From positions 294,463-358,462 of the forward strand of contig NZ_FMUX01000004.1 of the NCBI RefSeq assembly GCF_900101345.1: DNA of 64,000 bases, given 5' to 3'. The position numbers were made by a program, and so were the translations under genes. The notes below the pieces were generated by a model. That model did not search any database, was not told the DNA's origin, and saw only the letters and a list, made by a program, of their open reading frames with translations. Of this stretch, positions 23,140 to 48,586 are shown one piece after another (within the stretch, counting starts at the first letter, position 1; each line of letters opens with the position of its first letter). Source of the stretch: Desulfoluna spongiiphila. GTDB lineage: Bacteria > Desulfobacterota > Desulfobacteria > Desulfobacterales > Desulfolunaceae.

Positions 23140-25533
23140 TTACCGGCTTTGCAGCAGGGTTTTCAGCGCATCGGCAAGTTCGTCCCGACGGCTTTCGTCT
23201 CCTCCTGCCGCGGCATCCTGCCAGCGGGTCCAGAGGGTTTCAAAGTGCTGCATCTCGTCAAAGGAGAGAAAATGAAAGGAGGGCTGAAGGTGGACCGGGA
23301 GCTGTCCGGCGACCATCTCCATGGTGATTTCGCGAAAGACGTCGCTGGCAAACCGATCGGTCCACGCGGGAAACAGAATGCTGATGCCGTGGACGTAAAA
23401 ACCGTCCGGCGGGGTCTCCGGGTCTGTGCCGAAGGAGCGGGGCCTCAGGAGCAGGTGTTCCACCACATGCATCCCTTCGGTGGCCATGTTGATGTACATG
23501 AGGTAACGGCGCAGGAGATGCACCAGGTGGGCGGCCCTCCAGATCGTCCGGGTGCTGCCCAGGTAAACCCAGGTGTCCCCCATGTGAAAAGCGATCTGCA
23601 CATCATCGCAGTCGGACAGGTGCACCAGGCGGTACCGGTTCAACTGACCACCGCCCCGCAGAAGGGAATCGAACAGGAGGTTGTGACGAAAAGGGACGAT
23701 GGAGACCATCAACTCACGGACGGCCCCGCAGGTGAGCCGGGGTTCCTTCGGGGCGGGAGAGATGGGGGCCATGTGGCCGGACCCGTCAGCATCGAGGTCC
23801 GCGGCAAGGGTTCCGGCATGCAGGCCCAGGTAGTGTTCGTCGCTGACCAGCTCCAGGCTGTCCCGGGTGATGGCCTGGGTCAGGGAGTCATGCTTGTGAT
23901 GGTAAAACCCCAGGAGAATCTCGCACTTCATTTGAAACGGCGGGATGTTTCGCTCCCCTTCCACCCGGTGCCCCGGACGCGACCCCCTGAACCTGTGGGC
24001 CGAGATCTCGGGCAGCCGTTTTAAAAGGGCGATGCGCACCTGGATCAGGGCCTCGTCAAGGGCGGTATCGCTGAAGTAGCTTCCGTCCCGGCGAAGGGGC
24101 TCTTTCTCCACCGTCTCCCCGTAAAGGGCCAGGAGGTGGGTAAGAAACCCGTTGCGGCGCCGATGAAAGGCGTCGTATTTTTTCATCAGGGCCCTGTGGG
24201 CGGCCTCGGGCTCTTTTTTGGTTCGAAGCCCGTCCATGCCGCTGATGTGACCCGAGTCAAGGAACCTCCCGAACCGGGTCCGCCGCACCGCAGGCTCCGG
24301 GGAGAAAAGGTCGGGCATGGCATCCAGGGTGGCCATGCCGTCGGCCAGGAACTGTTCCATCAGGGCCAGGTACCCCTTGAGCTGCCTGGCCGCGGCCTTT
24401 CGTTCCTCGGGATAGGAGGGGGGAACGCCGAAGGCGTTGATCCCGTAGACATTGGGAAAGTGGTCCTGGATGGAGGTGTACTCACCGAAATCCCGAAACG
24501 TCGCCTCCGGAAGGGTATAAAGCGATGCGGGATCGTGGGGCACGGGGCGCCGCCCACCGAACTCCAGGGCGGAGTAAAGCCCCTTGAACTGATCTATATC
24601 AACGGCAAGGCGCTTTCCCTCAAGAAAGAGCGCGACCCGGTTGTCAGAATCGTGCCCGGGGATGGCAAGGGAGAGTACACTTCCCTTGTTCTCTCGCTGG
24701 ATGCAGACAAAGTGACGGAGCCCCCCCTTGAAAAAGCAGAGTTTTTTTACCGACACCACCCCTTCCACCTTCCGCACCGCCCCGATCACTTCGGTGACGG
24801 CGACCCTCTCCACCACGGACGAGCGCCCCAGCCGGGACAAAATACCGTGGCGGGTCAGGGGCCCATGGAAGACAGTGGCCAGTTCCACCTCCTCTTCCAG
24901 CATCGCCTGATGGGACTCCGGTCGGATTCCCGGCGCCAGGAGCCCGTTGCAGACATGGTAGATCTCAGCCATGACCACGGAAGGGGAACGGGATCCGTCG
25001 AGTTCCATCTCCGCTTCCAGGGTGTAGGGATCCTCGGTGAGGACCACCACCTCCAGGAGATCTTCCCCCAGGTTTCGAACGGCGTGGTATACGTCGGTGG
25101 CTTCGGCCATGAGATACGCCGCGTCCACACCCGGGGCCGCCCTCAGCAGAATCCGCCAAAGCCCTGGAAAAAGGGCCTCCACCCAGACATTCTCCACGCC
25201 TTCCAGCCGGTCGAAGAGGTGCTTTCTCAAGTCATCTCCCGTCACAGGCCCGCAGGGCAGGATGGCCTCGGGACTGAACATCCCCACGGCCTCCGGGACA
25301 AACCCCTCTTCCCCGGTGAAGTAGTCCACCGTGGGAAACCCCGTGCGATGCACCAGATCGGTAATGCCATAACAGAGATGCTCCAGCATGGTAACCCCGG
25401 GGTCGTGGAGGTTGTAGTCCGTCCACACCCCACCGGAGAGCTCCTGGATGAGCCGTATCCCCTCTTTGCGAAGGGACTCAAAGCTGGTGTCATCCCGGCT
25501 GAAATCCCGCTTTTTAAGGACCAGGGACCCCAT
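23140..25533 (-). CDS. eCIS baseplate wedge protein (Afp12-like)
   Basis: 797 residues, starting two bases after the fibre gene stop. The N-terminus carries the hallmark of large eCIS baseplate subunits: ELSGGVWTDYNLHDPGVTML followed by EHLCYGITDLVHRTGFPTVD. The middle contains VVERVAVTEVIGAVRKVEGV, and the C-terminal half is His/Arg-rich and soluble. In Afp/PVC particles this protein forms the baseplate wedge with the 1236-residue partner encoded upstream. Length and order fit. Confidence 0.85.
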   Translation of the reverse strand: MGSLVLKKRDFSRDDTSFESLRKEGIRLIQELSGGVWTDYNLHDPGVTMLEHLCYGITDLVHRTGFPTVDYFTGEEGFVPEAVGMFSPEAILPCGPVTGDDLRKHLFDRLEGVENVWVEALFPGLWRILLRAAPGVDAAYLMAEATDVYHAVRNLGEDLLEVVVLTEDPYTLEAEMELDGSRSPSVVMAEIYHVCNGLLAPGIRPESHQAMLEEEVELATVFHGPLTRHGILSRLGRSSVVERVAVTEVIGAVRKVEGVVSVKKLCFFKGGLRHFVCIQRENKGSVLSLAIPGHDSDNRVALFLEGKRLAVDIDQFKGLYSALEFGGRRPVPHDPASLYTLPEATFRDFGEYTSIQDHFPNVYGINAFGVPPSYPEERKAAARQLKGYLALMEQFLADGMATLDAMPDLFSPEPAVRRTRFGRFLDSGHISGMDGLRTKKEPEAAHRALMKKYDAFHRRRNGFLTHLLALYGETVEKEPLRRDGSYFSDTALDEALIQVRIALLKRLPEISAHRFRGSRPGHRVEGERNIPPFQMKCEILLGFYHHKHDSLTQAITRDSLELVSDEHYLGLHAGTLAADLDADGSGHMAPISPAPKEPRLTCGAVRELMVSIVPFRHNLLFDSLLRGGGQLNRYRLVHLSDCDDVQIAFHMGDTWVYLGSTRTIWRAAHLVHLLRRYLMYINMATEGMHVVEHLLLRPRSFGTDPETPPDGFYVHGISILFPAWTDRFASDVFREITMEMVAGQLPVHLQPSFHFLSFDEMQHFETLWTRWQDAAAGGDESRRDELADALKTLLQSR

Positions 25534-25534
25534 C

Positions 25535-26284
25535 TCACACCTGCCCGGGGTCTAAAGGAAGAACACAGGATTCCATGAAGGGATCGTCCCAGAGCCGCGC
25601 AAGGCCGAACCGGATGGCGGCATCATCTCCGTAGGCGCGGCAGGTACGCATCTCCAGCCGATAATCATGGCGTTTCCCTCGCCACCGGATCAGGATCCGG
25701 TTGCGCCGGGCGTCGAAATAGGCTTGGTGCATCGTGATCTTTCCCCGGCCCCTGAAGGTGTTCAGGGCCACAGCATGCACCAGGGCATAGCGCCCTTCCC
25801 GCTTTTTACCGGCCCCTGCCGTGATCTCAAAGGCCTGGCAGCCGTCAAGGCCGCTGACCAGGGTATGCCAGCACCCGTCGGCCGGAATCAACCCCTGGCG
25901 AAACCGACCTGTCTGGCCTTCCACGGCAAGGGTCCCGCGCAGATCCAGGTCGGACCGGGGGTCGTCGCAGCCGATGCCCACCCGCCCGTCGGGGGTCAGG
26001 GTAAGCAGGCTCTTGCTGTCTGCGTTGCGGAGGTGAAACCGCCCCGTATCCGGGTGGATCCCCATGGACCAGTCCGGGCAGACCATCTCCATCTTCTGAA
26101 AGAAGCTGATGAGCTTCTCCCGCTCCCCGATGGCGGCGATCTTCAAGCCGTGCTCTGCGGACTTTTCAAAGCCGTCGTCGATGATGTTGATCACCGAATC
26201 GATCAAATCCGCGAACTGCTTTTCCGACGGCAGGGCGCCCTTCTTGAAATACTTTTTCAGGGTATTGCGGTTCTGCTGGGCCAT
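25535..26284 (-). CDS. eCIS tail-fibre-like protein
   Basis: 249 residues with GGAG before the start. The N-terminus NRNTLKKYFKKGALPSEKQF followed by ADLIDSVINI is a form repeatedly seen beside eCIS baseplate genes. It is followed by the fibre-type repeat LLTLTPDGRVGIGCDDPRSD and LDLRGTLAVEGQTGRF (about 92-128), as in trimeric phage fibres. The C-terminal 110 residues (FEITAGAGKKREGRYALVHA) may be a receptor-binding head. It lies between the two large baseplate genes, so it probably attaches to the baseplate and decides target recognition. Confidence 0.75.
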   Translation of the reverse strand: MAQQNRNTLKKYFKKGALPSEKQFADLIDSVINIIDDGFEKSAEHGLKIAAIGEREKLISFFQKMEMVCPDWSMGIHPDTGRFHLRNADSKSLLTLTPDGRVGIGCDDPRSDLDLRGTLAVEGQTGRFRQGLIPADGCWHTLVSGLDGCQAFEITAGAGKKREGRYALVHAVALNTFRGRGKITMHQAYFDARRNRILIRWRGKRHDYRLEMRTCRAYGDDAAIRFGLARLWDDPFMESCVLPLDPGQV

Positions 26285-30679: not shown

Positions 30680-30982
30680 TTACCCTCCGATCATTACCGT
30701 AAGGCAGCCCATGGCGATGGTGCCGCCGTGGGCGGTGTTGTCGCCCACACGGGCTGCGGGACGTCCGCCGATCATGACGGTGGCCGACCCTTTGACAATG
30801 GCGTCCGGTGGGCCGACACAGGTACAGGTATCTCCCACCACGGAGGCGGGCATCTTGCCGATCATGACGTTGGGGACCCCGGGGCCTGTGACGGGGCCCC
30901 CCACGTGGGGGATGGGCGAAGGAAAGGCCGGGGTCTGCATGGGGCAGGTGTGCATGTCGGTGAGGCGGGCGGCGGGAGGCAT
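30680..30982 (-). CDS. PAAR-repeat spike tip protein (Afp10-like)
   Basis: 100 residues. The repeats are short: PAARLTDMHTCP, PNVMIGKMPASVVGDTCTC, ATVMIGGRPAARVGDNTAHG, LTVMIGG. They form the conical tip with a zinc site (His/Cys in DMHTCP and nearby). The start overlaps the spike gene stop (TGATG), implying coupling. There is no extra C-terminal toxin domain, so it is a plain tip. Confidence 0.92.
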   Translation of the reverse strand: MPPAARLTDMHTCPMQTPAFPSPIPHVGGPVTGPGVPNVMIGKMPASVVGDTCTCVGPPDAIVKGSATVMIGGRPAARVGDNTAHGGTIAMGCLTVMIGG

Positions 30983-32772
30983 CAGTTGATCATCACCATG
31001 GCCCCTTTGACCGTGGTCTGGCCCGAGGCCGAGAGCTCGGCGCTGGCGTTGCCCTTGGCCACCAGCCCCACGTCGGCCGCGGCATTGACGTTCATGCCTT
31101 TGAGCTTGACATCGGCTTTGGAGGTGACGCTGGCAGCGCCCATGGCATCCAGGGAGATCTTTCCCTTGGCCGTGACCGTGATGTCCTTGGGGCTGTCCAG
31201 GGAGATGCCCTTGTCGTTTAAGATGAGGGTGTTTTTGTTCTGGTCTTGCAGGGTGATGCCCTTGGCGTCGTCGCTGAGGATCACCTTGTTGCCCCCGGGA
31301 GTCTCCACGGTGATCACCTTCTTTTCTTCATCAAAGGTGATCTTCATCTTCTCCCGGGTGACAATGGCCTTGGTGTTGTTCTTGGCTTCGGGCTGGACCG
31401 GCATCTTGTGACAGCTCCCTTGAAGGGAGCCCAGGATCACCGGGTGACGAGGGTCTGAGTTGAAAAAGCCCAGGACCACCTCGTCCCCCACCTCTGGGAT
31501 AAAAAAGGTTCCCGCGTCCTTGGTGCCGTACAGGGTGGCCATCCTGGCCCAGATCCCCGGGGTGCTGTTCTCCATCACGGGCAGGGAGACCTGGATCCGG
31601 GTCTCTTTGGCCGGATCCGCATCGAGCTTGGTCACGAGCCCCACCTGGAGCCCGTCCACGCCGGGAAGCTGGCCCGAGGCCTTGGGCGGGGAGATGTCAT
31701 CCCTTTCTGCAAACCAGTCCGGGGAGAGCCCGAACTCCACATCCGTGTACCAGTCTCCCATGGAGATATCGTGGTGCACGGTGGCCACGAAGACCTTGCC
31801 GTTGAACCGGTCCCCCACCCCTTCCACCTCCACCAGGTCCCCCGGGGAGACCTTGGCGCTGCCCTGAAACCGCATGGTCCCGCGGATCCGTGCCAGCCCC
31901 GACTTGAGAAGGCGTGCATCGGCCCAGGCCTTCAGGGCATCACCCTCCATGGGGACGGCGCTTCGCAGCACCCCCTTGGGGTCCGCCACCACCTTGGCGA
32001 GTTCGGCTGTGGTGATGTTTCCCTGGGCCTGCAGTGAGGGTTTGGACCCGGTCTTTTCTGCAATGGCAAGGGTCTTGGGATCCCAGGAGACCCCGCGGGA
32101 GGCCGCCACCTGATGCCGCGCGTCCATGTCGGCGCGAAAATGAATCAGGTCGTCCCCCCAGGTGACCTTGAGCACTGCCGCCCCGTCGGTCTTGGGGGGC
32201 TTTACCGAAACCTTTCCGTCGGCCACGGTCACCAGAAGCCCGTTGGCATCGGCCCGGGTGAGCATGAAATCCCAGTCCGTGGCCTGGTACTGCACCATGC
32301 GGGCATGGGTGGGGCGGGTGGATGCAACGTCTGCGGACAGGCCCGGGCAGGCCTTGATCAATTTTGAGAGGATGGCGCTGTCGGCACTGTCCGTGTGGTT
32401 GGTGTTCTTCCGCACCGAGCACAGGGCCACGGCCTTGTCCCGGCACTCCACCACAAGGTGGGAGCCCCCGTCGTGGATATTGATGCCATGGGTGATCACC
32501 ACCCCCTTGAACACCGGGACCGCCACCTTGCCGTACCCCACCTCCAGGGTGATCTCAGCGCCGGGTTTAAATGCCTTGTCGCTGCTCACCTCAAAGGTCT
32601 TGTCGCTCATGTCGCCGTCGATGAGCACCAGCTGGGCCCAGGGGATCCGGTTGATCTTCTTGTCCACCACCGCGGAGATCACCCGGCATTTCTTCTCATC
32701 CACCTCACTGCCGCCGCTTTTCACCACCAGCTTTAAGACACCGTCGGCCTCTTTTTTCGGGGAATCGGGCAC
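30982..32772 (-). CDS. VgrG-like central spike protein (Afp8-like)
   Basis: 596 residues starting with GTG at 32772, overlapping the PAAR gene by the TGATG junction. The order is a gp27-like hub (about 1-370), a gp5-type OB fold around 395-450 (PGIWARMATLYGTKDAGTFF, IPEVGDEVVLGFF), then a beta-helical needle (KVITVETPGGNKVILSDDAK and following repeats). It forms the trimeric piercing spike capped by the PAAR protein. Confidence 0.92.
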   Translation of the reverse strand: MPDSPKKEADGVLKLVVKSGGSEVDEKKCRVISAVVDKKINRIPWAQLVLIDGDMSDKTFEVSSDKAFKPGAEITLEVGYGKVAVPVFKGVVITHGINIHDGGSHLVVECRDKAVALCSVRKNTNHTDSADSAILSKLIKACPGLSADVASTRPTHARMVQYQATDWDFMLTRADANGLLVTVADGKVSVKPPKTDGAAVLKVTWGDDLIHFRADMDARHQVAASRGVSWDPKTLAIAEKTGSKPSLQAQGNITTAELAKVVADPKGVLRSAVPMEGDALKAWADARLLKSGLARIRGTMRFQGSAKVSPGDLVEVEGVGDRFNGKVFVATVHHDISMGDWYTDVEFGLSPDWFAERDDISPPKASGQLPGVDGLQVGLVTKLDADPAKETRIQVSLPVMENSTPGIWARMATLYGTKDAGTFFIPEVGDEVVLGFFNSDPRHPVILGSLQGSCHKMPVQPEAKNNTKAIVTREKMKITFDEEKKVITVETPGGNKVILSDDAKGITLQDQNKNTLILNDKGISLDSPKDITVTAKGKISLDAMGAASVTSKADVKLKGMNVNAAADVGLVAKGNASAELSASGQTTVKGAMVMIN

Positions 32773-33636: not shown

Positions 33637-34137
33637 TCAGATAATGCGAAACATGTGGTTGTAACTCAGCTCAATCTCTTCGATGGCCACCTCGTTGCCG
33701 GTGGCGTTGAAGGGGTCCATCTTCCAGTTCACCGGGTAGGCGTTGGCAAAGAACCACCCACGCACCGGGAGCCGGTTTTCGTCCAGCAGATACACAAGGA
33801 CAGGCATGGGGACCAGGGCCACATGGCACCCCGACTCAAACACGGACTTGCACCAGATCACCAACGGGGAGGTGACATCGGCCACCCCCCGTTTCAACAG
33901 GAGCTTGGGATGTCTCACCCCCTTTGGCAATCGGTGGACGTAACGGTTCTCTCCCCCTTCCACCACCTCTTCGAGTTCCATCTCAGAGCCGATGCCGCCC
34001 ACCTCTTTAAACGAGGTGTCGGTGGCTCCCTGGGTGGCCGAAAAGACCACCCGGAAATGAAACGACGCCGGCAGGGCGCCACCGAACATCCCACCAAGGG
34101 GGAGAGACATAAGGCCTGCATCCGGTATACCTATCAT
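33637..34137 (-). CDS. eCIS tail tube protein, second copy (Afp5-like)
   Basis: 166 residues. It follows the gp19/Hcp-like tube pattern: FHFRVVFSATQGATDTSFKE, VGGIGSEMELEEVVEGGENR, a central VTSPLVIWCKSVF, and the closing GNEVAIEEIELSYNHMFR, which parallels GNEVAIESIEIAHEGL in the main tube protein encoded upstream. It probably forms the tube-baseplate initiating ring. Confidence 0.88.
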   Translation of the reverse strand: MIGIPDAGLMSLPLGGMFGGALPASFHFRVVFSATQGATDTSFKEVGGIGSEMELEEVVEGGENRYVHRLPKGVRHPKLLLKRGVADVTSPLVIWCKSVFESGCHVALVPMPVLVYLLDENRLPVRGWFFANAYPVNWKMDPFNATGNEVAIEEIELSYNHMFRII

Positions 34138-37160: not shown

Positions 37161-37170
37161 TGGGCACCCC

Positions 37171-37785: not shown

Positions 37786-37926
37786 TCAATGGCCCGCCGC
37801 TGCCACGGCCATGGAGATCCCAAGAAGGCCCCCATACCCCAGAAAACCGGAAACGCCCAGGAACATGGCGACACACCCGCCAAGGGCAAACCAGGCCAGC
37901 GCATGGTGCAGAAGTGATGAGTTCAT
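37786..37926 (-). CDS. Small membrane protein, unknown
   Basis: 46 residues (MNSSLLHHALAWFALGGC and onward) made of two hydrophobic segments joined by GVSGFLGYGG. A longer in-frame start lacks support, and the chosen ATG has only a weak upstream site. A membrane miniprotein between a cap gene and a DUF6765 gene could be an accessory or lysis helper. It could also be spurious. Confidence 0.4.
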   Translation of the reverse strand: MNSSLLHHALAWFALGGCVAMFLGVSGFLGYGGLLGISMAVAAAGH

Positions 37927-37994
37927 GGAATCGTTCTTTCGAAATGGAGGTGAGAAATGCGGAAACATGGGCTTTTTTTCAAGGCCATGGGCCT

Positions 37995-39491
37995 TCAGCA
38001 GAAAAACAGGGTCTCGATTTCAAAGGGTGAGGTGGCCCTCTGGAGGGCTCGGTTCCTCAGCTTGAGACGCGCCACCTGATCGGAATAGTAGTACCCGCCG
38101 GAGCCCCTCCCCTTGGGGAGCCAGAACTCGGCAATCTCATCAAGGAGATGGAACTGGGACGGCAGGCAGGCTGAGGTTTTTGCAAAGGGCAGCACCTTCA
38201 CCCTGGTCCCCGGGGTCTGGAGCCGTTGGAACAGGTGGGCAAACACCGCTTTGGCCGCGCAGTTCCATTTGATAAAGGGAAGGCCCGTGAACTCCCGGAC
38301 GGACATCTCCCCACCCCCGGCAGATTTGACCTGGGCCGCCCACGCATCCCGGGTGGCGTCATAAACAGCCATGTCAACGCGAAGACCCGGCTTGATCACC
38401 TCGGTAACCAGCGCCCCCCACCGCTCTTCCGAGGCCCGGAACCAGGTATCGGCGGCCAGGTTCATTCCCGAATCGTAGAGGTCACGGTCGCACGCCTCAT
38501 GGGCTGTCGGGCAGATGACCCGGCCCACGCGCTCAAAAAAAGAGGCGTCCAGGCCAAAGGCTTCGTCTGCGTCGCTATCCGATGCAAGAAAGGAAAAGCG
38601 TTCCCCTGCACGCACAGCCCGAAGGGCACGCACCATCTCCATGAAACAGGTCAAAAAGACCTCCGGGTTGTTTCGGTTGGTGTCGGTTTTCCCGTCCGAC
38701 CAGCAGGGCTCAAACTCATAGGCAATGGACGAAACATCGGGAAGGTGGCCCATGTGGCCGTGCCCCACCCGGGTGGCGTCCATGGGCACCTCGGAGTAGG
38801 CCGTCAGGGGCGCTGCCGGTCCCCTGCCAACCCGCCAGGGCCAGGCGATCTCCTTGGGGCTTCGCTTGCGGGGAATCCAGCGGCGCCCCTTCCAGCTCCC
38901 CTTGTTCGTAAAGGTACCTGCGTTTCGCCAGATGCCCAGGCGCGGGGCATTGAGCTCCGGGGAAGCGCTGCCCGCAAAGTCCTGGTGGCCATAGGTGTCT
39001 GCAAACACATGCATGCAGATCCCCACAAGCATCAGGGCAAGGTGACGGTCCACCGCAGAAAGCTCCCCGTACCGATCCACGGCAAAGTTGACAAGCTCCC
39101 TGGCCGCTTCGCTCCCCGGACGGCAGAGGGCGTCCAGGGCTTCCCCGGCCGGTCCCCTTCGAACCACCACCGGGTCCTTCGGGCTCGGCGTGTTCCCGGG
39201 CAGGTAGTGAAAGGGCATCCAGATCTGCCGGGTTTCGTCGACTTCAGAGGCTCCGGCCCAGGTATTCAAATCGGCCACCGCCGTGATGATGGGGGTAAAG
39301 ACATACCCGCCCCCTGCGAGCACCCACACCTGTCTGGGGTTCCGGTTAAGGGGCCGGCCCTTGTGGGTGACAGCCTCCGTGCAATCGTCCACGAACTGCG
39401 CCGCAGTGGCGATGGTCAACGCCTCTTTACCGGAGAAACCGGCCCGGGAAGCCGCCATGAACGTCCCGAAAAAATGGAAATCTCGATCCAC
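37995..39491 (-). CDS. DUF6765-family protein (metal-dependent hydrolase-like)
   Basis: 498 residues from a GTG with AAGGAGG six bases upstream; a longer reading frame is not supported. It opens VDRDFHFFGTFMAASRAGFS, parallel to the cargo-island paralogue at 8202-10331. It shares LVGICMHVFADTYGHQDFAG and VGHGHMGHLPDVSSIAYEFE, the His/Asp-rich motifs of the family, but lacks the two beta repeats. It sits inside the structural cluster between the cap gene and the lysozyme, suggesting an accessory enzyme of assembly or release rather than cargo, though either is possible. Confidence 0.75.
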   Translation of the reverse strand: MDRDFHFFGTFMAASRAGFSGKEALTIATAAQFVDDCTEAVTHKGRPLNRNPRQVWVLAGGGYVFTPIITAVADLNTWAGASEVDETRQIWMPFHYLPGNTPSPKDPVVVRRGPAGEALDALCRPGSEAARELVNFAVDRYGELSAVDRHLALMLVGICMHVFADTYGHQDFAGSASPELNAPRLGIWRNAGTFTNKGSWKGRRWIPRKRSPKEIAWPWRVGRGPAAPLTAYSEVPMDATRVGHGHMGHLPDVSSIAYEFEPCWSDGKTDTNRNNPEVFLTCFMEMVRALRAVRAGERFSFLASDSDADEAFGLDASFFERVGRVICPTAHEACDRDLYDSGMNLAADTWFRASEERWGALVTEVIKPGLRVDMAVYDATRDAWAAQVKSAGGGEMSVREFTGLPFIKWNCAAKAVFAHLFQRLQTPGTRVKVLPFAKTSACLPSQFHLLDEIAEFWLPKGRGSGGYYYSDQVARLKLRNRALQRATSPFEIETLFFC

Positions 39492-39659
39492 CAATGGCCT
39501 CCTTATAGATAGACGGGGGAACGGGTCCTGGCATGCCCTCGAATGCCATGGAATCACAACTCCCCGCTCCCCCGACAGAACAGGGCCGGTCCGGCACCCC
39601 GCAAAATACAGATACGCTGCAGGCCGTCTCAATCGCGATGCCTGCGACCATGCCATGAC

Positions 39660-40463
39660 TTACCCCAGATGGGACCGGATCAATTCGGCCTCCATACGCC
39701 GTCGTTTCCGGATCCCTTCAAGGGGGTGATCCTGCTGCATGGCTCCCACCACGTTGGCCACTTCGGCCCAGTTTTTCTCCTCGATGGGTTGACGCAACAC
39801 CTCCAGGCCTTTGTTGTATGGACCCCGGTTGTAGGCGAGGGAGAGCATCACCGTCTGGACCGGAGGAAAGGTGTCGTCATCTGCCAGGGTCTTGAATCGC
39901 CCGGAGATCTTCTCCCAATACGGATCGGCGGCATACGGAAAAATCGTATCCGACTGCTCCCGGGACACCCGGATGCTCTGAACCACAGGGTTGGCCGAAA
40001 GGGCCGCCTTGGCCGCCTCGCCTTTGATTCCGGCAACCGATTCAATGGCACTGAGCTGCTCCCTTGAAAACAGGGGCCCGTAGAGTTTCTCTACCAGGGA
40101 AGAGGCGGCATACCCGAGATCGATTCCCGGGTCCAGGGTCACGCCGGACTCCCCCCCGGGCCAGTACGCTTTTCCGGCGTAGCCTTCCCGGGCGTGGACC
40201 CATGCCGCATCCCCCCTGAAACCTCGAAGGATCTCTCCGCCGGTCTCCAGGGCCTTCCATGTGTCCGAATCCACGATGCCGGTGGCGGCAAGCCCCTTGT
40301 CCGCCTGGAAGCGTTTCAGCTCCGCCTCCGTGCCCCTGCCGAACAGGCCGTCGGTATCCACGGGGTACCCGGCTTTGACCAACCCCTGCTGAAACACTTT
40401 CACTTCGGGCCGTAACTCAGGTGATTGACGGGAAAACCCGTCCCCTTGCTTTAAGGTCTTCAT
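39660..40463 (-). CDS. Peptidoglycan-binding lysozyme-like protein
   Basis: 267 residues from the ATG at 40463 (GGGAGGAA upstream). Residues about 18-72 are a PG_binding_1 domain (VFQQGLVKAGYPVDTDGLFG, LKRFQADKGL). Residues 85-260 are a T4-lysozyme/pesticin-like hydrolase: VHAREGYAGKAYW, with candidate catalytic Glu93, then GGESGVTLDPGIDLGY and LSLAYNRGPY. There is no signal peptide, so access to the wall would need a holin, cell lysis or the particle itself. Probably helps particle release or base-plate anchoring. Confidence 0.85.
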   Translation of the reverse strand: MKTLKQGDGFSRQSPELRPEVKVFQQGLVKAGYPVDTDGLFGRGTEAELKRFQADKGLAATGIVDSDTWKALETGGEILRGFRGDAAWVHAREGYAGKAYWPGGESGVTLDPGIDLGYAASSLVEKLYGPLFSREQLSAIESVAGIKGEAAKAALSANPVVQSIRVSREQSDTIFPYAADPYWEKISGRFKTLADDDTFPPVQTVMLSLAYNRGPYNKGLEVLRQPIEEKNWAEVANVVGAMQQDHPLEGIRKRRRMEAELIRSHLG

Positions 40464-40514
40464 GGTGTTCCTCCCTGCTGGTGTTGACATGATAAATAAT
40501 CGGGCAGCCTGCAC

Positions 40515-41342
40515 TTACCGCACGGATGCCCCCTGCCCCATGGGCCTCGCCGAACCCGGCCCCGGGCCCCCCCCGGCCATATCTCCCAACACGGCCAACC
40601 AGACCAGCAACACCGGATCCCGCCGGTAATCGGCCTTGAACAGGAAGCGATCCAGGCTCGTTGTCCGGCCCCCGTGCCGCCATGGGTTCCAGCCCCCCGT
40701 CGAGATGCGGGCAACCCCATGGCACTCATGGTCCAGCACCCAGACGCATCCCCTGCTGCCCTCCCTTTCCCTGAAATCCTGAAGGCTTGCTATAAGCGCC
40801 ACCACCTGTTGGAGAATTCGGTCCGCAGGCCCCGGGGCAAGGCGTTTCAGCACCTTTTCCAGCTGGTGTTCGGACATCACGCAAACCAGCCTGTGGCCTC
40901 CTGTGCTGTGCATCCCAAGGGAGGAAATAAACTCACGGACACATCCGGGGGGCTTTCTGAGAAGGCGGTCCACCCAGCGCCTCAGGGCGTATCCCTCCTC
41001 CATGGAGGTAAAGGCATCTGAAAAAAGAAGCTGCCGGGCATGGGCGGTGCGCCGCACCGTTATGTCCCCGAGCCTGTGCCGGCAGGCGTCTCCCTCGGCA
41101 ACGCCCTTCAATGCACGGTGCCAGCTGTGGTGCCCCGGAAACCTTTGGCACAGGCCCTTAAGGACCTCCCTCGCTCCGGGATCCCCGTGCAGATGCCACC
41201 GCTCGACCCAATCCATGCACTCCCTCAGGCAGGGGTCCCGGTAAAAGGCCTCGATGGCGGCCGTTCCGGGCCTCCGGTGCCGGTGCGCCCACCGGCTCGC
41301 GCCCATCAGGTACCGCGCCGATGCGGGCCTAATAATCGTCAT
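40515..41342 (-). CDS. Possible eCIS tape-measure-like protein (CIS_TMP-like)
   Basis: 275 residues. The ATG at 41342 overlaps the end of the 710-residue gene by 14 bases, so it is coupled to it. The segment GHRLVCVMSEHQLEKVLKRL followed by APGPADRILQQV resembles the (R)RLVRQ-F/L-S-x2-LE-x-LL-x-RL repeat unit of eCIS tape-measure family proteins, but the product is short for a ruler. Arg/His-rich stretches lie at both ends. The assignment is uncertain; no other tape-measure candidate is present. Confidence 0.4.
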   Translation of the reverse strand: MTIIRPASARYLMGASRWAHRHRRPGTAAIEAFYRDPCLRECMDWVERWHLHGDPGAREVLKGLCQRFPGHHSWHRALKGVAEGDACRHRLGDITVRRTAHARQLLFSDAFTSMEEGYALRRWVDRLLRKPPGCVREFISSLGMHSTGGHRLVCVMSEHQLEKVLKRLAPGPADRILQQVVALIASLQDFREREGSRGCVWVLDHECHGVARISTGGWNPWRHGGRTTSLDRFLFKADYRRDPVLLVWLAVLGDMAGGGPGPGSARPMGQGASVR

Positions 41343-43461
41343 CAAACAAGTGGCTCAGCAGCAGGTCGTCATCCAGGGGATCGTCCTTGTGCCCCTTGAG
41401 CGGCGGGTCATCGGCGGGGGGCTCTGAAACGACCGGCAATGCCGCAACCTCTTGCCTGGCCCCGCCCTTCACCGGCTCCGGAGGCGCCAGGCTGTTGTCG
41501 CCTTTTTGAAAACGGGTGGTCAGGGCAAAGGCGGCATACCTCTGGACGTTTTCATCAAGCAGGGCGGGCAGCCCCACCAAATCGTTGTAGAGCTCATACT
41601 CTTTGACAATCCCGATGCGCTCGGTCCCTCCCCCGCCGTCTCCAAGGACGAACTGCGAAGGAATCATCTCCACGAAGTGACCGATGGGCGAATGGGCAAG
41701 GATCGTCTGCCTGGGCATTTGCGTCCCGCCCTTTTCCCGGGTATGGATCTCCACGGCTTTTTCGATGACCATAAGATCGCCGACGCTTGCTTTACCCTCC
41801 TGTTTCCCGCCGATGCGGCTCTCCACCAGAAGAAGCTCCTTGGCGATGGTCAACTGGCGGGGGGTGATATTCAAATTCTGGATCGTCTCCCGGATGGTCC
41901 AGCCGGGGAGCATATCGACATAGACATTCTCGGATCCGGCAATAAGGCCAAGGATCTCGTCGTTTACCTGGGTAAGAGAGCCGAGCCTTAATTTGGCGTT
42001 CTTGTGGTTGAAAATACTGGCAAGGTAAGCCGACACCACCTGGTGAAGCACGGTGAGCTTTCGCGATTTAAAGGCCTCAAAGCTCTCTTTTTTCAGGGCC
42101 ATGAACGGGGCGGCAAAGGCAGGGTCCCGTTCACCGATGCGCAGCTCAAGGCCGCTGTAGCAAAACCGGATCAGCTTTGTTTCATCAAGGTCCAGGGCCA
42201 GCCGCTTGATTTTCCCGTAGTTGATCAGCAGTTCGTTGCTCACATACCCGTGCAGCCTTTTAAGGGGCGTCTTGATCTCAACCCAGTGGCCCACCCACCG
42301 ATTGGTCTCCATGAGGTCGTCGTTGGTGTAGCGAAGGGTGTCCATGGACACATGGACCACCAGAAGATCGTCCCGCTCAATAAACACCCTGTTGTGCAAC
42401 TCGTTGAAGAAGGCTTTGATGCCCCCTACGTCCACGGCATCGTCCTCGGGCCCGGTGAGGGTGACACCCACCAGCCTGGGCAGCAGGCCTGCATCCGAGG
42501 CGATCCATTCATCGTACCGCCCCAGGAGCTTGACGACCTCCTTTGCCGTGGAGCCCGTCCCCTCGGGGTTCACATCGGGCACTTTCAGCAGGAACCGCAC
42601 CCGTGTCTCGGAGTCGTCGCCGGTGCCGTACCTGTGCGTGGCGTACCACACCACCTGCATCATTTTGTCGAAGGGGTGCCTGGCAAGGCCGGTGATGAAC
42701 GCTTCCAGCGATGCAAAGGCTTCGACGTAGTAGGTTCCCCCCTCAAAGCCCCTGGGCTTCCAATAGTTTTCATACACCTGCCGCCCGTTGGTCCCGACAA
42801 AGGCGGACAGGTGCTCCAGGGTGTCCACGTGCTCCGGGCCGATGCCCACCCCGAACTGAAGGCTGAAGGCCCTGAAGATCACCTCTTCGGGCAAGTGCCC
42901 GATGACCAGGCCCGCATCTTCTGCGGTGATATTTTTCCCCACGTGCAGCGATTTTTTTATATTTCTCAAGCAGTAAGCGTTGATGCTCCTGGTCAGGACG
43001 ATGCGCCTCTTCATCAAGTGGCAGACCTCGAACTTGGCTTCATTGAAATAGCGTTTCAAATTCGCCACGATGCTCTTTTTTTTCGCAGGTGCCGAGGAGC
43101 CCGGCACCACGACGAGGTCATCGAAGGAGTCAAAGATCCTCTGGCTGTCGTCATCCACCTGCCGGGTGGTTGTAAACAGGCGAATCAACGTCCCCAGGGC
43201 CACGCAGTGGGTCACCATCATCCGCGCCAGGTTCATGCCCGCAACCTGGCAGACCTCAACCGCCTGCACCTCGGTGTCGCTGTCCTCATCCATGGTGTCC
43301 AGGGTGCCGATCACCGTTTCAAGAACCCCCTGCACCAGCCCCAGGTAACAGGTAAACACGTACTGTTCGTCTTTTTTCGCCAGCTCCGTGATCGCCTCCA
43401 GGTACCGCTCCGTCGGCAACTCCCGCCCGAACTGAGAATTGAAATTTCCTACTGTCTGCAT
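41329..43461 (-). CDS. Large unknown protein at reb/eCIS junction
   Basis: 710 residues; GAGGA precedes the start. It is helical at the N-terminus (YLEAITELAKKDEQYVFTCY, LGLVQGVLETVIGTLDTMDE) with a long soluble middle (TRSINAYCLRNIKKSLHVGK, DDLLVVHVSMDTLRYTNDDL). The tail is acidic (DDPLDDDLLLSHLFDDDY) and preceded by a Pro/Lys linker. I see no known domain. It is the first gene of the eCIS block, 80 bp below the last reb gene with no clear terminator between, and it overlaps the next gene. A role as a loading factor or regulator linking the two modules is only inference. Confidence 0.65.
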   Translation of the reverse strand: MQTVGNFNSQFGRELPTERYLEAITELAKKDEQYVFTCYLGLVQGVLETVIGTLDTMDEDSDTEVQAVEVCQVAGMNLARMMVTHCVALGTLIRLFTTTRQVDDDSQRIFDSFDDLVVVPGSSAPAKKKSIVANLKRYFNEAKFEVCHLMKRRIVLTRSINAYCLRNIKKSLHVGKNITAEDAGLVIGHLPEEVIFRAFSLQFGVGIGPEHVDTLEHLSAFVGTNGRQVYENYWKPRGFEGGTYYVEAFASLEAFITGLARHPFDKMMQVVWYATHRYGTGDDSETRVRFLLKVPDVNPEGTGSTAKEVVKLLGRYDEWIASDAGLLPRLVGVTLTGPEDDAVDVGGIKAFFNELHNRVFIERDDLLVVHVSMDTLRYTNDDLMETNRWVGHWVEIKTPLKRLHGYVSNELLINYGKIKRLALDLDETKLIRFCYSGLELRIGERDPAFAAPFMALKKESFEAFKSRKLTVLHQVVSAYLASIFNHKNAKLRLGSLTQVNDEILGLIAGSENVYVDMLPGWTIRETIQNLNITPRQLTIAKELLLVESRIGGKQEGKASVGDLMVIEKAVEIHTREKGGTQMPRQTILAHSPIGHFVEMIPSQFVLGDGGGGTERIGIVKEYELYNDLVGLPALLDENVQRYAAFALTTRFQKGDNSLAPPEPVKGGARQEVAALPVVSEPPADDPPLKGHKDDPLDDDLLLSHLFDDDY

Positions 43462-43964: not shown

Positions 43965-44231
43965 TTATTTGATAAGCGACAGAATTTTCTGACAGGTTTT
44001 TGCCACCGCCGCAGCCTCGATCTGCTTCATTCCGTACTGGGTGGAACCGGCATTTTGCATCACCAGGCTCAGCGAATGAGCCAACGATTCGTAAGAAACA
44101 GCCATGGCTTCATCGGACGCCACCCCGATGGCGGCTACGTTGGTGCTGGTGACCGCATCCAGGACCCTGGGATCCACTTTATTCTCATCTGCACTGCCCG
44201 CGTCAGCAGCCGGTTTGCTCATCTCAGCCAT
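43965..44231 (-). CDS. RebB-family R-body protein, divergent
   Basis: 88 residues starting after GAGGGGG. After a short polar N-terminus (ADAGSADENKVD) it has VLDAVTSTNVAAIGVASDEA then MAVSYESLAHSLSLVMQNAG, fitting the TDAVT(x)TNV and (L)YQ(T)...(A)...NA pattern of the short paralogues, with sequence divergence and a different end. Likely a distinct subunit of the ribbon. Confidence 0.75.
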   Translation of the reverse strand: MAEMSKPAADAGSADENKVDPRVLDAVTSTNVAAIGVASDEAMAVSYESLAHSLSLVMQNAGSTQYGMKQIEAAAVAKTCQKILSLIK

Positions 44232-44309
44232 AGAACCCCCTCATCGGTTGGCGCCTGAAAACACCGACCTTCGGGATGAAGGCCGATGTTTTCAAAGCTT
44301 CAGTGGTGC

Positions 44310-44537
44310 TTACTTGGGATTGATCATCTTGGTGATCGCCACGGTGGTGGCGGTCTGATGCGTGACATTGGCCTGCTGCTGGGCGTAAACCGCGTTGGCA
44401 GCGGCCATGGCCACGGAGTTGCCGATGGTCTGATACAGGCTGCCCATGGCCATTGCAGGTGCTTCGGACAGGACCTTCACGTTGGTCTGGGTGACGGCGT
44501 CGGTGACCGCCGGGCTGAGTTCGGGAAGTTGTGCCAT
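44310..44537 (-). CDS. rebB: RebB-family R-body protein, short form
   Basis: 75 residues. It reads MAQLPELSPAVTDAVTQTNV, then LSEAPAMAMGSLYQTIGNSV and AMAAANAVYAQQQANV, the RebB core, and ends AITKMINPK. It differs from the product at 44684-44911 at about seven positions. One of a set of near-identical 74-75 residue paralogues that probably co-polymerise. AAGGAG precedes the start. Confidence 0.85.
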   Translation of the reverse strand: MAQLPELSPAVTDAVTQTNVKVLSEAPAMAMGSLYQTIGNSVAMAAANAVYAQQQANVTHQTATTVAITKMINPK

Positions 44538-44942: not shown

Positions 44943-45167
44943 TTAACCGTTAACCAGCTTGGTGATGGCAACCGTGGTTGCCGTTTGATAGGTCACGTTG
45001 GCCTGCTGCTGGGCATACACGGCGTTGGCGGCGGCCATGGCAACAGAGTTACCGATGGTCTGATAAAGGCTGCCCATGGCCATGGCAGGAGCTTCGGAGA
45101 GAACTTTGACGTTGGTCTGGGTCACTGCATCGGTTACGGCCGGGCTGATCTCTGCAAGTTGTGGCAT
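44943..45167 (-). CDS. rebB: RebB-family R-body protein, short form
   Basis: 74 residues, AAAGGAGG upstream. It starts MPQLAEISPAVTDAVTQTNV and keeps EAPAMAMGSLYQTIGNSVAM and the YAQQQANVTYQTATTVAITK core, ending LVNG. It is the copy most like 44310-44537. Confidence 0.85.
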   Translation of the reverse strand: MPQLAEISPAVTDAVTQTNVKVLSEAPAMAMGSLYQTIGNSVAMAAANAVYAQQQANVTYQTATTVAITKLVNG

Positions 45168-45929: not shown

Positions 45930-46154
45930 TCAATCTTCCATCAGTTTTTTCACAGCAAGGGTGGTGGCTGCCTGGAAAGTGACGTTTGCCTGCTGCTGTG
46001 CATACACCGCGTTTGCAGCAGCCATCGCCACTGAGTTACCGATGGTCTGATACAGACTGCCGAGGGCCATGGCTGGGGATTCACCCAACACACTCAAGTT
46101 TGATTCGGTGACCGCATCTGTGATCGCTGGGCTGACTTCCTGAAGTTGAGTCAT
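45930..46154 (-). CDS. rebB: RebB-family R-body protein, short form
   Basis: 74 residues; AAAAGGAG precedes the start. MTQLQEVSPAITDAVTESNL, VLGESPAMALGSLYQTI, and AMAAANAVYAQQQANVTFQ are the family core, ending AVKKLMED. Charged C-termini vary across the copies and may tune ribbon assembly or disassembly. Confidence 0.85.
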   Translation of the reverse strand: MTQLQEVSPAITDAVTESNLSVLGESPAMALGSLYQTIGNSVAMAAANAVYAQQQANVTFQAATTLAVKKLMED

Positions 46155-46217: not shown

Positions 46218-46682
46218 TCACGACTCAGGAGCCGGTTCCTCGGAAGGAGCCGCAGGGTCCGGGGCCGGATTCGCCTGAAATTCAGGGTGCATCTTCTTCA
46301 GCATCTCGTTGCTTTTCTTGGTTAAGGCTTCGAGCTGCTTTGTCGCGCTCTTCAACATGGCATCCGCATGTTTGAACTGCTCATTGACCTGTTCCGATGT
46401 CTGGGACGACATCTTCATGAAGGCATTAACCTGACTCGCCTCCGGATCGCCGGCCGACGGACCGTCTTCCCCTTCGGGGGCCTCCCCGTCGGACTGGGTA
46501 AAAATCACGTTGTTGATCTTGATCAGTTTTTCGATCTCTTCGGCTTTATCCTCAAGGAACTGGTTGTTCATCTTCACCATGTCGCTCAGAGACGACGTGT
46601 AGTTCTTCAAAAATGAGCTGTAATTTTTTTTAAAGGAGCCAAAATCCTGGTGTGTAAACTTGAATACATTCTCATCTGCCAT
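46218..46682 (-). CDS. Coiled-coil accessory protein of the reb cluster
   Basis: 154 residues; no RebB core. It begins MADENVFKFTHQDFGSFKKN, and is predicted helical with heptad-like stretches about 20-60 (KNYTSSLSDMVKMNNQFLED) and 85-135 (MKMSSQTSEQVNEQFKHADA, MLKSATKQLEALTKKSNEML). Between them is an acidic Gly/Pro linker and at the end a Pro/Ala/Glu tail. It lies between two long-form genes and short-form genes, in the position where RebC/RebD-like accessory proteins might be expected; the link is positional. Confidence 0.65.
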   Translation of the reverse strand: MADENVFKFTHQDFGSFKKNYSSFLKNYTSSLSDMVKMNNQFLEDKAEEIEKLIKINNVIFTQSDGEAPEGEDGPSAGDPEASQVNAFMKMSSQTSEQVNEQFKHADAMLKSATKQLEALTKKSNEMLKKMHPEFQANPAPDPAAPSEEPAPES

Positions 46683-47079: not shown

Positions 47080-47295
47080 TTATGAACGAAGCATTTTGAT
47101 GACATTCTCAACGGTCGCTGTTTGGTGGACAATGCAGGACTGCTGCTGTGAATGCACGGCATTCATAGCCGCCATGGTGGTGTTGAATCCCTGGGTCTGG
47201 TACTGGCTTGCCAGGGACATTGCCGGAGAGGACCCGACAACAAGCGAATTGATCTGTGAAACCGCATCCGTTACAGCCTGGCTGAAATCCGTCAT
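47080..47295 (-). CDS. RebB-family R-body protein, first gene of the array
   Basis: 71 residues; GAGGGAGG precedes the start. It begins MTDFSQAVTDAVSQINSLVV and has SSPAMSLASQYQTQGFNTTM and AAMNAVHSQQQSCIVHQTAT, the RebB pattern with Cys and His replacing some Gln/Ala. It is the most promoter-proximal gene, about 126 bp below the sigma-54 promoter. Confidence 0.8.
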   Translation of the reverse strand: MTDFSQAVTDAVSQINSLVVGSSPAMSLASQYQTQGFNTTMAAMNAVHSQQQSCIVHQTATVENVIKMLRS

Positions 47296-47420: not shown

Positions 47421-47437
47421 TAGCAACCTTCGTGCCA
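47421..47437 (-). promoter_or_regulatory. Sigma-54 promoter (-24/-12) for the reb array
   Basis: On the minus strand this reads TGGCACGAAGGTTGCTA, an exact match to the TGGCACG-N4-TTGCW consensus with correct GG and GC spacing. It faces the first reb gene (start 47295), and the next gene upstream encodes a sigma-54 activator. No other match this good was noticed near the eCIS genes. Confidence 0.85.
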
Positions 47438-47540: not shown

Positions 47541-47608
47541 CGGGGTCATCGCAGCTCATCGCGCGAGACACACAACCATTGAAATTAACCGATGATCGCC
47601 ATCAGCGA

Positions 47609-48586
47609 TCACGCACCGTTGCACAGTTTGACTTTTCTCTCGATATATTTACGATGAACGCCCAGAAACCGGGCGGCCTGGCTCTTGTTCCCCTCCGCCC
47701 TCAAAAGCGCACGGCGCACCAGGGCCGTTTCCATGCGTTCAACCTTGTCCTCACAGGCAAGATCAATGACCTGATCGGCCACATTGTCAAAGGTCTCATC
47801 AAGGGGCAATACCTCCTGATGGGCAAAGGTGGCCACGCTTTTTTCCGTAATGGGGTTTTCGTCGGAGAGAAGGGATATCTTTTCGATGGTGTTCTTCAAC
47901 TGGCGTATGTTGCCCGGCCAGTCCAAGGCCATCATCGCCTGCAACGCCCCGTCCGTAAAGTCCACCCGCTGCTCGACACGACGCAGGAAAAACCGTATCA
48001 ATTCAGGAATATCCTGGCGCCGTTCCTGCAGAGACGGAACCTCAAGGTTGAGAACATTCAAGCGATAGTAAAGGTCTTCGCGAAACCTGCGATGCTCAAT
48101 CATCGTTTCAAGATCCGCGTGGGTCGCTGCGATGATGCGCCCCTCAAAAGGGAGGTTCACGGCCCCTCCCAGGGGCCGGTACGACCTGGATTCGATCACG
48201 CGCAGCAATTTCGCCTGCTGGGGAAGCGGAAGCTCCCCGATTTCATCGAGAAACAGCGTTCCCCTGCCGGTGATGGAGAGGTAGCCCTGATGCTTCCCCG
48301 TTGCCCCGGTGAACATGCCCTTTTCATGGCCGAACAACAGGGTCTCCACCAATGTCTCCGGTATGGCGGCGCAGTTGATGTCCACAAAGGGCAGACGTGG
48401 GTCCCCCCGCATGTGGTGAATCACAGACGCGATGACCTCCTTTCCACAGCCCGTCGGCCCGGTGATCAGCACCGGCAGTGAAGAGGGAGCGATTCTGCAG
48501 ACCATATCCATCACGTGCTCCATCTTCGACGAACTGCCGATCACCATGGCATCGCGTACAATCTCCTGATTGACTTTCAAGTCCAT
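47609..48586 (-). CDS. Sigma-54-dependent transcriptional activator (bEBP)
   Basis: 325 residues from the ATG at 48586. Walker A GPTGCGKE (43-50), sigma-54-contact loop GMFTGAT (90-96, Met for Ala in GAFTGA), Walker B GRGTLFLDEIGELPLP, sensor WPGNIRQLKN and a C-terminal Fis-type helix-turn-helix (SQAARFLGVHRKYIERKV) are all present. There is no N-terminal receiver or GAF domain, so it is like PspF: activity must be set by a partner protein or by level. It sits directly upstream of the reb sigma-54 promoter on the same strand and probably controls the R-body genes, and perhaps the eCIS genes below them. Confidence 0.9.
   Translation of the reverse strand: MDLKVNQEIVRDAMVIGSSSKMEHVMDMVCRIAPSSLPVLITGPTGCGKEVIASVIHHMRGDPRLPFVDINCAAIPETLVETLLFGHEKGMFTGATGKHQGYLSITGRGTLFLDEIGELPLPQQAKLLRVIESRSYRPLGGAVNLPFEGRIIAATHADLETMIEHRRFREDLYYRLNVLNLEVPSLQERRQDIPELIRFFLRRVEQRVDFTDGALQAMMALDWPGNIRQLKNTIEKISLLSDENPITEKSVATFAHQEVLPLDETFDNVADQVIDLACEDKVERMETALVRRALLRAEGNKSQAARFLGVHRKYIERKVKLCNGA

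What the first reader, a model, noticed from the sequence alone, without database searches (positions are those of the whole stretch)
23140..48586. An R-body (RebB) array fused head-to-tail with an extracellular contractile injection system
Nine intact RebB-family genes, a broken copy, a coiled-coil gene and a sigma-54 activator run directly into eCIS genes on the same strand. An 80-bp gap separates the last reb gene from the first gene of the eCIS block, with no evident terminator. R-bodies burst membranes from inside; eCIS particles lack an export route and need cell lysis. The pairing suggests a built-in release mechanism. I do not know of a described R-body/eCIS combination.
Basis: partly seen in the sequence, partly recalled or inferred. 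Interest (0 to 1): 0.95.

Follow-up and report, generated by a model that had tools for sequence, protein, structure and literature searches.

The report
R-body operon wired to injection particles
In the bacterium Desulfoluna, genes of the R-body family (coiled protein ribbons known to burst cells) and a lysozyme-like gene lie in one same-strand run with genes for a phage-tail-like injection machine, behind a regulator of a type found beside R-body genes in other phyla, so the cell likely makes both together and would burst itself to let the injectors out.

Summary
The pairing is real. A reb array (7 intact RebB, 2 reb-linked paralogues, 1 TAG-broken copy) and a contractile injection system (CIS) share one strand, with a sigma-54 activator (EBP) upstream. 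Correction: the gene 80 bp after the array is not a CIS gene but a 710-aa orphan family (7 hits in about 5.8 billion proteins, 6 of them on contigs with RebB by length). Then come an unknown gene, a lysozyme-like gene, DUF6765 and a small ORF; the first CIS gene lies 5.8 kb past the array.

In a same-genus relative (G002) the same EBP and a sigma-54-like site directly precede the CIS, without reb. That EBP nests (100/99) among EBPs beside reb arrays in other phyla. The literature searches listed no paper linking R-bodies to eCIS.

Limits: no transcript or microscopy data; a strong hairpin inside the array may attenuate transcription; no AAA ATPase found at the locus; elsewhere the two systems often share a genome but are seldom neighbours. 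Most likely: one sigma-54 switch makes particles plus a reb/lysozyme release module.

The parts
47609..48646 (-). Sigma-54 enhancer-binding protein (EBP), 345 aa, AAA+ and Fis HTH, no other domain found; GMFTGA in place of the usual GAFTGA
   Evidence: Pfam PF00158 E 1.3e-60; inside a 100/99 clade with EBPs beside reb in other phyla; motif
47422..47437 (-). Predicted sigma-54 promoter TGGCACGAAGGTTGCT
   Evidence: only zero-mismatch match to the (recalled) consensus in the window; same 16 bases in D. butyratoxydans; related site before Pvc16 in G002
47080..47295 (-). RebB-family gene 1 (71 aa)
   Evidence: PF11747 60 bits
46707..47060 (-). reb-linked paralogue, 117 aa
   Evidence: no PF11747 hit; homologues in other reb clusters
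46218..46682 (-). Helical/coiled-coil-type protein, 154 aa
   Evidence: only weak Pfam hits below cut-off
45930..46154 (-). RebB
   Evidence: PF11747 84.9 bits
45528..45755 (-). RebB
   Evidence: PF11747 84.1 bits
45203..45382 (-). Broken RebB copy with an in-frame TAG
   Evidence: G000:C29:339665-339844, 1 TAG
44943..45167 (-). RebB
   Evidence: PF11747 82.7 bits
44684..44911 (-). RebB
   Evidence: PF11747 79.4 bits; 100% identical protein in D. butyratoxydans
44310..44537 (-). RebB
   Evidence: PF11747 82.9 bits; 100% identical protein in D. butyratoxydans
44232..44309 (-). Intergenic hairpin with short U tract: possible attenuator
   Evidence: -33.7 kcal/mol, z -4.05; also in D. butyratoxydans
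43965..44231 (-). RebB-family gene (88 aa)
   Evidence: PF11747 53.4 bits
43542..43901 (-). reb-linked paralogue, 119 aa
   Evidence: no PF11747 hit; homologues in other reb clusters
41329..43461 (-). 710-aa orphan family, reb-linked
   Evidence: 7 hits in the database (only the 7992 candidates sharing most words were scored), 6 on contigs that carry RebB by length; no Pfam, PHROG or PDB sequence match
40515..41345 (-). 276-aa orphan, overlaps its upstream neighbour by 17 bp
39660..40514 (-). Lysozyme-like gene: peptidoglycan-binding domain plus pesticin/phage-lysozyme-like domain
   Evidence: PF01471 E 1.9e-16; PF16754 25.8 bits, exactly at its cut-off. PHROG and PDB endolysin matches cover only the peptidoglycan-binding part
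37995..39656 (-). DUF6765 protein, 553 aa, function unknown
   Evidence: PF20551 E 2.7e-54
37786..37968 (-). Small ORF with a hydrophobic stretch; a similar stretch in D. butyratoxydans, seen by eye
   Evidence: no PHROG
37171..37755 (-). CIS cap protein (Pvc16_N)
   Evidence: PF14065 E 1.5e-29
36291..37247 (-). CIS-linked gene, 318 aa as the first start codon gives it
   Evidence: no Pfam; homologue at the same place in G002
34672..36462 (-). Tail sheath
   Evidence: PF17482; PDB 9r9h, 7adz, 7b5h
34170..34628 (-). Inner tube
   Evidence: PF06841 E 6.2e-49; PDB
33637..34137 (-). Second gp19-type tube protein
   Evidence: PF06841
32776..33450 (-). CIS_tube
   Evidence: PF19266 E 6.5e-45
30982..32772 (-). 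Spike/hub
   Evidence: PF04717
30680..30982 (-). PAAR tip
   Evidence: PF05488
30265..30675 (-). gp25 baseplate wedge
   Evidence: PF04965
26554..30264 (-). Baseplate J-like, 1236 aa
   Evidence: PF04865 21.8 bits, just over its cut-off
25535..26284 (-). CIS-linked gene, 249 aa
   Evidence: 73% identical in G002
23140..25533 (-). Putative baseplate assembly protein, 797 aa
   Evidence: short partial TIGR02243 match below cut-off; 47% identical in G002

Best explanation
In Desulfoluna, an activator of an R-body-linked sigma-54 family and a predicted sigma-54 promoter sit at the head of a same-strand run of R-body-family genes, a lysozyme-like gene and contractile injection genes, and this run likely works as one switch-driven unit that builds injection particles together with the R-body and lysozyme machinery that would burst the cell and release them. 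Shown: the gene order, its conservation in D. butyratoxydans, the EBP phylogeny, a sigma-54-like site in front of the CIS in a relative without reb, and low dN/dS. Inferred: co-transcription, perhaps with the R-body subunits more abundant than the CIS parts because of the hairpin in the array; R-body assembly; R-body extension breaking the inner membrane so that the lysozyme, which has no hydrophobic stretch that would export it (hydropathy scan only), can reach the wall; release of particles. The trigger for extension is unknown: acidification inside a grazing protist, as reported for Caedibacter, is one candidate.
For: Same order in the window genome and D. butyratoxydans MSL71. In G002 the same flanks, EBP, a terminator-like hairpin and a sigma-54-like site 119 bp upstream lead straight to Pvc16. 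The EBP of window, D. butyratoxydans and G002 lies in a 16-row clade (100/99) whose other 13 rows are all EBPs found within 10 kb of reb, apart from 30 other EBPs of this genome (of 75 matches) and three more. Sigma-54-like sites scoring >= 23 are enriched within 250 bp upstream of reb-family genes: 7 seen, 1.15 expected. Lysozyme-like gene. Tight packing of 710/276/lysozyme/DUF6765 (gaps -17, 0, 3). dN/dS 0.00-0.29 for 27 intact genes. No folding signal in the two junction gaps.
Against: No RNA, protein or microscopy data. The hairpin with U4 inside the array, and a second structured gap with a T7 run (45790-45929 folded, z -1.96), could cut transcription short. The pattern scan of 36-49 kb lists 21 terminator-like sites (14.5 expected) and 10 sigma-70-like sites (4.7 expected), among them minus-strand promoter-like sites inside the 710-aa and DUF6765 genes and one weak terminator-like site just before Pvc16, so internal starts and stops are not excluded. 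Counting up to 2 mismatches, sigma-54 matches in the window are not above chance (6 against 11.5). In the phylum RebB and Pvc16 overlap in 1 of 395 genomes, and two other reb+ genomes (G073, G473) have no CIS_tube. Of 12 other reb+CIS genomes, 11 keep the two on different contigs. In genus relatives the CIS is lost or decayed (G001, G003, G004). The 6,682,390-bp contig has RebB and 710-aa rows but no Pvc16 row, although rows can be missing: D. butyratoxydans' own 710-aa gene is not listed under its 492,188-bp contig either. The pesticin-type domain only just reaches its cut-off, and such domains are read as injected toxins in the literature (PMC8213781). Both structure models were too weak to use (pLDDT 52.9 and 36.3).
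Confidence: 0.5

Rival explanations
1. Co-regulated arsenal: R-bodies and the CIS are two separate anti-predator weapons put under one switch; the R-body acts only after ingestion, and the CIS does not depend on it for release, or is freed only because the eaten cell bursts.
For: Same EBP and promoter evidence. R-body lysis in lysosomal conditions is the known role in Caedibacter (PMC8322103 passages). The two systems co-occur in genomes where they are unlinked: CIS_tube in 13 of 24 searched genomes of the reb loci, D. butyratoxydans among them; RebB in 10, CIS_tube in 11 and both in 5 of 146 Shewanellaceae, Fisher p 1.9e-4, 0.05 when four genomes with like arrays (G493, G495-G497) are counted once.
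Against: Does not explain the lysozyme-like gene between the array and the cap gene; eCIS particles are held to need producer lysis (PMC10598620 passages).
Confidence: 0.25
2. The 710-aa, 276-aa, lysozyme-like and DUF6765 proteins are cargo of the CIS, and R-bodies have nothing to do with release.
For: Pesticin domains (PF16754) have been listed as antibacterial eCIS toxins (PMC8213781). A second DUF6765 gene and a GH19 chitinase-like gene lie beyond the CIS.
Against: That paper says such toxins tend to lie at the 3' end of operons; these lie at the 5' end, before the cap. The 710-aa family goes with reb: 6 of 7 hits are on contigs with RebB rows by length. One of these, the 5,141,290-bp Desulfobacter contig, has no Pvc16 row among the 120 of 166 listed, though rows can be missing.
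Confidence: 0.15
3. Fortuitous neighbourhood: a reb module inserted between a regulator and a CIS, with separate expression.
For: Reb and CIS are seldom neighbours elsewhere. Hairpin in the array and promoter- and terminator-like sites within the run. All secure cases are one clade.
Against: Linkage seen in lineages whose Pvc16 differs by up to 31%, and low dN/dS between the two genomes compared. R-body-type EBP and a sigma-54-like site in front of the CIS even without reb.
Confidence: 0.1

Closest known systems
R-bodies (Caedibacter, Pseudomonas aeruginosa PA14 and other reb clusters)
   Same: PF11747 RebB proteins in tandem, with regulator genes nearby; lysis of the producer in lysosomal conditions is the outcome described for Caedibacter (PMC8322103).
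   Different: [quoted passage not shown] Raymann 2013 found no prophage or phage-like elements within 40 kb on each side in 25 complete genomes. Here a sigma-54 EBP and a CIS are attached.
eCIS of the AlgoCIS / Anabaena tCIS type
   Same: Sheath and tube match chains 7adz and 7b5h (7adz as AlgoCIS and 7b5h as tCIS is recalled), after the closest deposited one, 9r9h, whose source I could not identify. tCIS are exposed by cell lysis (PMC8894136 passages).
   Different: Preceded by a reb array and an R-body-type EBP; no AAA ATPase found at the locus by tblastn.
R-tailocin holin/endolysin cassettes
   Same: Function proposed: lysis genes in the same cluster and under the same regulation as the particle (PMC10598620 passages).
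   Different: No holin or spanin recognised in the proteins scanned; R-body genes stand where a membrane-breaking part would be expected.
Marinomonas mediterranea MMB-1 (R-bodies and an R-type bacteriocin in one organism)
   Same: An organism reported to make R-bodies (a 2003 paper seen only as a reference title) and a contractile R-type bacteriocin (PMC10870725).
   Different: R-bodies are mentioned there only in the reference list; no genomic link is described in what I saw.

Membership tests
R-body (reb) locus | RebB-family proteins | tested here: met
   7 intact genes over the PF11747 cut-off
R-body (reb) locus | Several tandem reb genes with accessory genes | tested here: met
   9 intact plus 1 broken; the 117/119-aa paralogue type is shared with 16 of 25 reb loci
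R-body (reb) locus | Assembly of an extendable ribbon | not testable with these tools
   needs microscopy
eCIS | Sheath, tube, CIS_tube, spike/hub, PAAR, gp25, baseplate J, Pvc16 cap | tested here: met
eCIS | Afp15/Pvc15-type AAA ATPase in the cluster (recalled as core) | tested here: not met
   tblastn with the NORP12 ATPase finds none in the window, in 36 kb of D. butyratoxydans or in the 39-kb G002 contig; it does hit L034, a second CIS-like locus at G000 C35
eCIS | Tail fibre, tape measure, eCIS_core cargo | tested here: inconclusive
   no Pfam hit for these in the window ORFs scanned; not every ORF was scanned
eCIS | Free extracellular particle released by lysis | not testable with these tools
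   needs electron microscopy
Sigma-54 EBP | Walker A, Walker B, GAFTGA loop, HTH | tested here: inconclusive
   Walker A and B, AAA and HTH present; loop reads GMFTGA here and GIFTGA in G002, GAFTGA in the other 13 reb-linked EBPs
Sigma-54 EBP beside reb | Phylogenetic placement with EBPs beside reb | tested here: met
   16-row clade, 100/99

The most novel reading that the evidence does not exclude
R-bodies are the release engine of a contractile injection system: a cross-phylum R-body sigma-54 switch has been placed in charge of a CIS, so that one signal makes both the particles and the membrane-bursting ribbon plus lysozyme that free them, in place of a phage holin.
Probability: 0.4. Interest if true: 0.93.

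Novelty: new variant of a known kind. Interest (0 to 1): 0.84.

Why it matters
How non-tailocin CIS particles leave the cell, and what R-bodies do in free-living bacteria, are both open. This locus ties the two into one testable unit in a genus with a named, sequenced species (D. butyratoxydans MSL71). It also suggests that a short sigma-54 activator is a cross-phylum regulator of R-body arrays, and that a CIS can be rewired to that switch.

Tried and rejected
Structure models of the 710-aa protein (pLDDT 52.9) and of DUF6765 (36.3) were too weak, so no fold search was run. A phospholipase-like reading of DUF6765 from recalled motifs was dropped as untested. The scan of viral contigs gave 33 stretches with a RebB pattern, none confirmed by tblastn; the plasmid collection gave no 710-aa relative. 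The idea that adjacency is general was rejected: 1 of 25 loci by tblastn. NORP12 (L080) has an AAA ATPase and an eCIS_core gene, the latter about 7.4 kb from a RebB gene on one contig, but opposite-strand ORFs lie between, so I do not count it as the same arrangement; the search of its genus held no other genome. Rfam: no match at gathering scores in 36000-49500. The Xenorhabdus paper that holds 'killing trait' and eCIS means an insect-killing trait, not RebB.

Dropped before counts: G569 (RebB under the cut-off) was left out, giving 10 of 146 in place of 11; G416 likewise, giving 3 of 395 in place of 4; L068 was not held for the CIS_tube search. L063 and L064 have an EBP that is not counted as reb-type: L063 fell outside the clade, L064 was not in the tree. 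That leaves 14 of 25 loci with a reb-type EBP. Only 30 of this genome's 75 PF00158 matches went into the tree besides the window's own. The table was typed from the 120 listed of 639 RebB hits, the 7 hits of the 710-aa gene and the top 14 of the 120 listed (of 166) Pvc16 hits; a cluster shows only its longest contig.
Full report
What is there. The window is the end of contig C29 of a 6.5-Mb genome of the genus Desulfoluna: its same-genus relative G005 has the contig length and reb locus of D. butyratoxydans MSL71. On the minus strand, reading from 48.6 kb down, come an EBP gene, its terminator-like hairpin (z -4.84), a perfect match to the recalled sigma-54 consensus 126 bp before the first reb gene, the reb array, a 710-aa gene, a 276-aa gene, a lysozyme-like gene, DUF6765, a small ORF with a hydrophobic stretch, and then the CIS from Pvc16 to a 797-aa baseplate-type gene.

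The gene 80 bp after the array is not a CIS gene. Its family has 7 hits in a search of about 5.8 billion proteins, in which only the 7992 candidates sharing most words were scored. By exact contig length, six of the seven also have RebB rows among the 120 listed of 639 (6,682,390; 328,073; 45,257; 15,617; 40,614; 5,141,290); the seventh (7,708 bp) does not. It is therefore best called a reb-linked gene. The first CIS gene lies 5.8 kb past the last reb gene.

Conservation of the pairing. D. butyratoxydans has the whole run in the same order, with dN/dS of 0.00 to 0.29 for the 27 intact genes compared. Three contig lengths in the protein database (45,257, 40,614 and 328,073 bp) carry RebB, the 710-aa gene and Pvc16; the 328,073-bp one is a near twin of D. 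butyratoxydans. I could not read these contigs, so order and strand there are unknown, and a shared length is strong but indirect evidence that the genes lie on one contig. Against this, the 6,682,390-bp contig has RebB and 710-aa rows but no Pvc16 row; rows can be missing, since the 710-aa gene of D. butyratoxydans, seen directly, is not listed under its contig length. In a tree of 23 Pvc16 proteins the five reb+ rows fall in one clade (96/90), which also holds one short contig of unknown content, and G002 falls outside (the root is a midpoint).

The reb-less relative. In G002 (same genus; no RebB in its genome) the flanking genes match (57-76% identity), the EBP is 68% identical, and Pvc16 follows with no reb, 710-aa, 276-aa, lysozyme or DUF6765 homologue on its 39-kb contig. 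A sigma-54-like site with one mismatch to the recalled consensus stands 119 bp before Pvc16. In the other genus members the site is decayed or empty: G001 keeps a sheath and one tube gene next to the same flank, G003 and G004 keep only the flank in what was fetched. So either the reb module was inserted between the CIS and its promoter, or G002 lost it.

The switch. A tree of 49 EBPs puts the three Desulfoluna EBPs in a clade with 13 EBPs that lie within 10 kb of reb arrays in Planctomycetota, Myxococcota and Pseudomonadota (100/99); 30 other EBPs of this genome and three more fall outside. In all, 14 of the 25 reb loci found in genome contigs have such an EBP. Sigma-54-like sites are enriched before reb-family genes: 7 in 30,000 bp against 1.15 expected, p 2e-4; 5 with p 0.005 after leaving out Desulfoluna and one of two Rheinheimera (weights and consensus recalled). 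In the window as a whole, matches with up to 2 mismatches are not above chance (6 against 11.5). Four Oxalobacteraceae CIS loci of a related type have perfect sites about 489-527 bp before Pvc16, while the Shewanella, Aliikangiella, Thalassomonas and NORP12 loci have none at the threshold used. The regulator of this CIS is thus of R-body type, and sigma-54 control of related CIS may exist without it.

Wider co-occurrence. RebB is over its cut-off in 3 and Pvc16 in 17 of 395 phylum genomes, both in 1 (Fisher p 0.12). Among 96 nearer relatives, the window's genome included, RebB is in 3 and CIS_tube in 10. Among genomes of the 25 reb loci, CIS_tube is present in 13 of the 24 that could be searched, but on a reb contig only in D. 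butyratoxydans and NORP12. In 146 Shewanellaceae, RebB is in 10, CIS_tube in 11, both in 5 (p 1.9e-4; 0.05 if four genomes with like arrays are counted once). The two systems may thus go together beyond Desulfoluna, but this is weak and is not adjacency.

Mechanism. Most likely the EBP fires the promoter, the array is transcribed at a high level and the rest at a lower level through the hairpin, CIS particles and R-bodies build up, and R-body extension with the lysozyme breaks the envelope. Everything after the gene order, the tree and the motif is inference. The weak points are the hairpin and the other start- and stop-like sites in the run, the missing ATPase and the chance that the lysozyme is cargo: its catalytic domain match is exactly at the Pfam cut-off, its endolysin matches cover only the wall-binding part, and pesticin domains have been read as eCIS toxins (PMC8213781, passages). 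The same paper does say that such toxins might contribute to lysis of the producer.

Literature. A search for R-bodies with contractile injection system gave one paper, which names R-bodies only in its reference list. Searches (20 of 73 papers listed; 20 of 39; 15 of 133; 40 of 46) list no other paper with both an R-body term and a CIS or tailocin term, apart from the chance match explained; one search gave none. Seen as passages only: PMC3583457, PMC8322103, PMC10598620, PMC8213781, PMC8894136, PMC10870725, PMC11566119; PMC13430693 as outline, abstract and one passage. The two reb surveys name sigma factors or other regulators near reb. The terms RpoN, sigma-54 and enhancer do not occur in the PA14 paper, and a search on reb with sigma-54 terms showed nothing on R-bodies in the 15 of 24 papers listed. 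Only open-licence PMC papers are held, so absence here is not absence in print.

Noticed in passing
L059, L060, L065-L068, L070, L071, L073-L077 (with L056: 14 of 25 reb loci): A short sigma-54 EBP clade lies within 10 kb of reb arrays in three phyla besides Desulfoluna's; seemingly a general R-body regulator, named in no passage I read.
   Followed up: partly
window 47609-48646: The EBP loop reads GMFTGA here and in D. butyratoxydans, and GIFTGA in G002, against GAFTGA in the 13 other reb-linked EBPs.
   Followed up: partly
L080 9749-10180: NORP12 (Alteromonadaceae MAG) has a RebB domain behind a Nif11-like stretch (below the Pfam cut-off), about 7.4 kb from an eCIS_core gene.
   Followed up: partly
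G000 C35 about 22-29 kb (L034, L053); G005 C8 about 233 kb: A second CIS-like locus: Pvc16, a weak CIS_tube match and an AAA ATPase homologue in G000; the weak CIS_tube match in G005.
   Followed up: no
window 8202-10331, 10561-11532, 15164-16417: Beyond the CIS lie a second DUF6765 gene, an endonuclease/phosphatase-type gene (below cut-off) and a GH19 chitinase-like gene: possible cargo.
   Followed up: no
window 2602-3648 and 1-5000: A DDE_3 transposase in a stretch of lower GC (0.38-0.46, against 0.5-0.66 over most of the window): perhaps an island edge.
   Followed up: no
L125 13100-15500: Another Desulfoluna (G001) keeps only a sheath and one tube gene at the same flank: a CIS in decay.
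   Followed up: partly
L099 18253, L101 11198, L103 about 6900, L104 18014: Perfect sigma-54 sites about 0.5 kb before Pvc16 in four Oxalobacteraceae CIS loci.
   Followed up: partly
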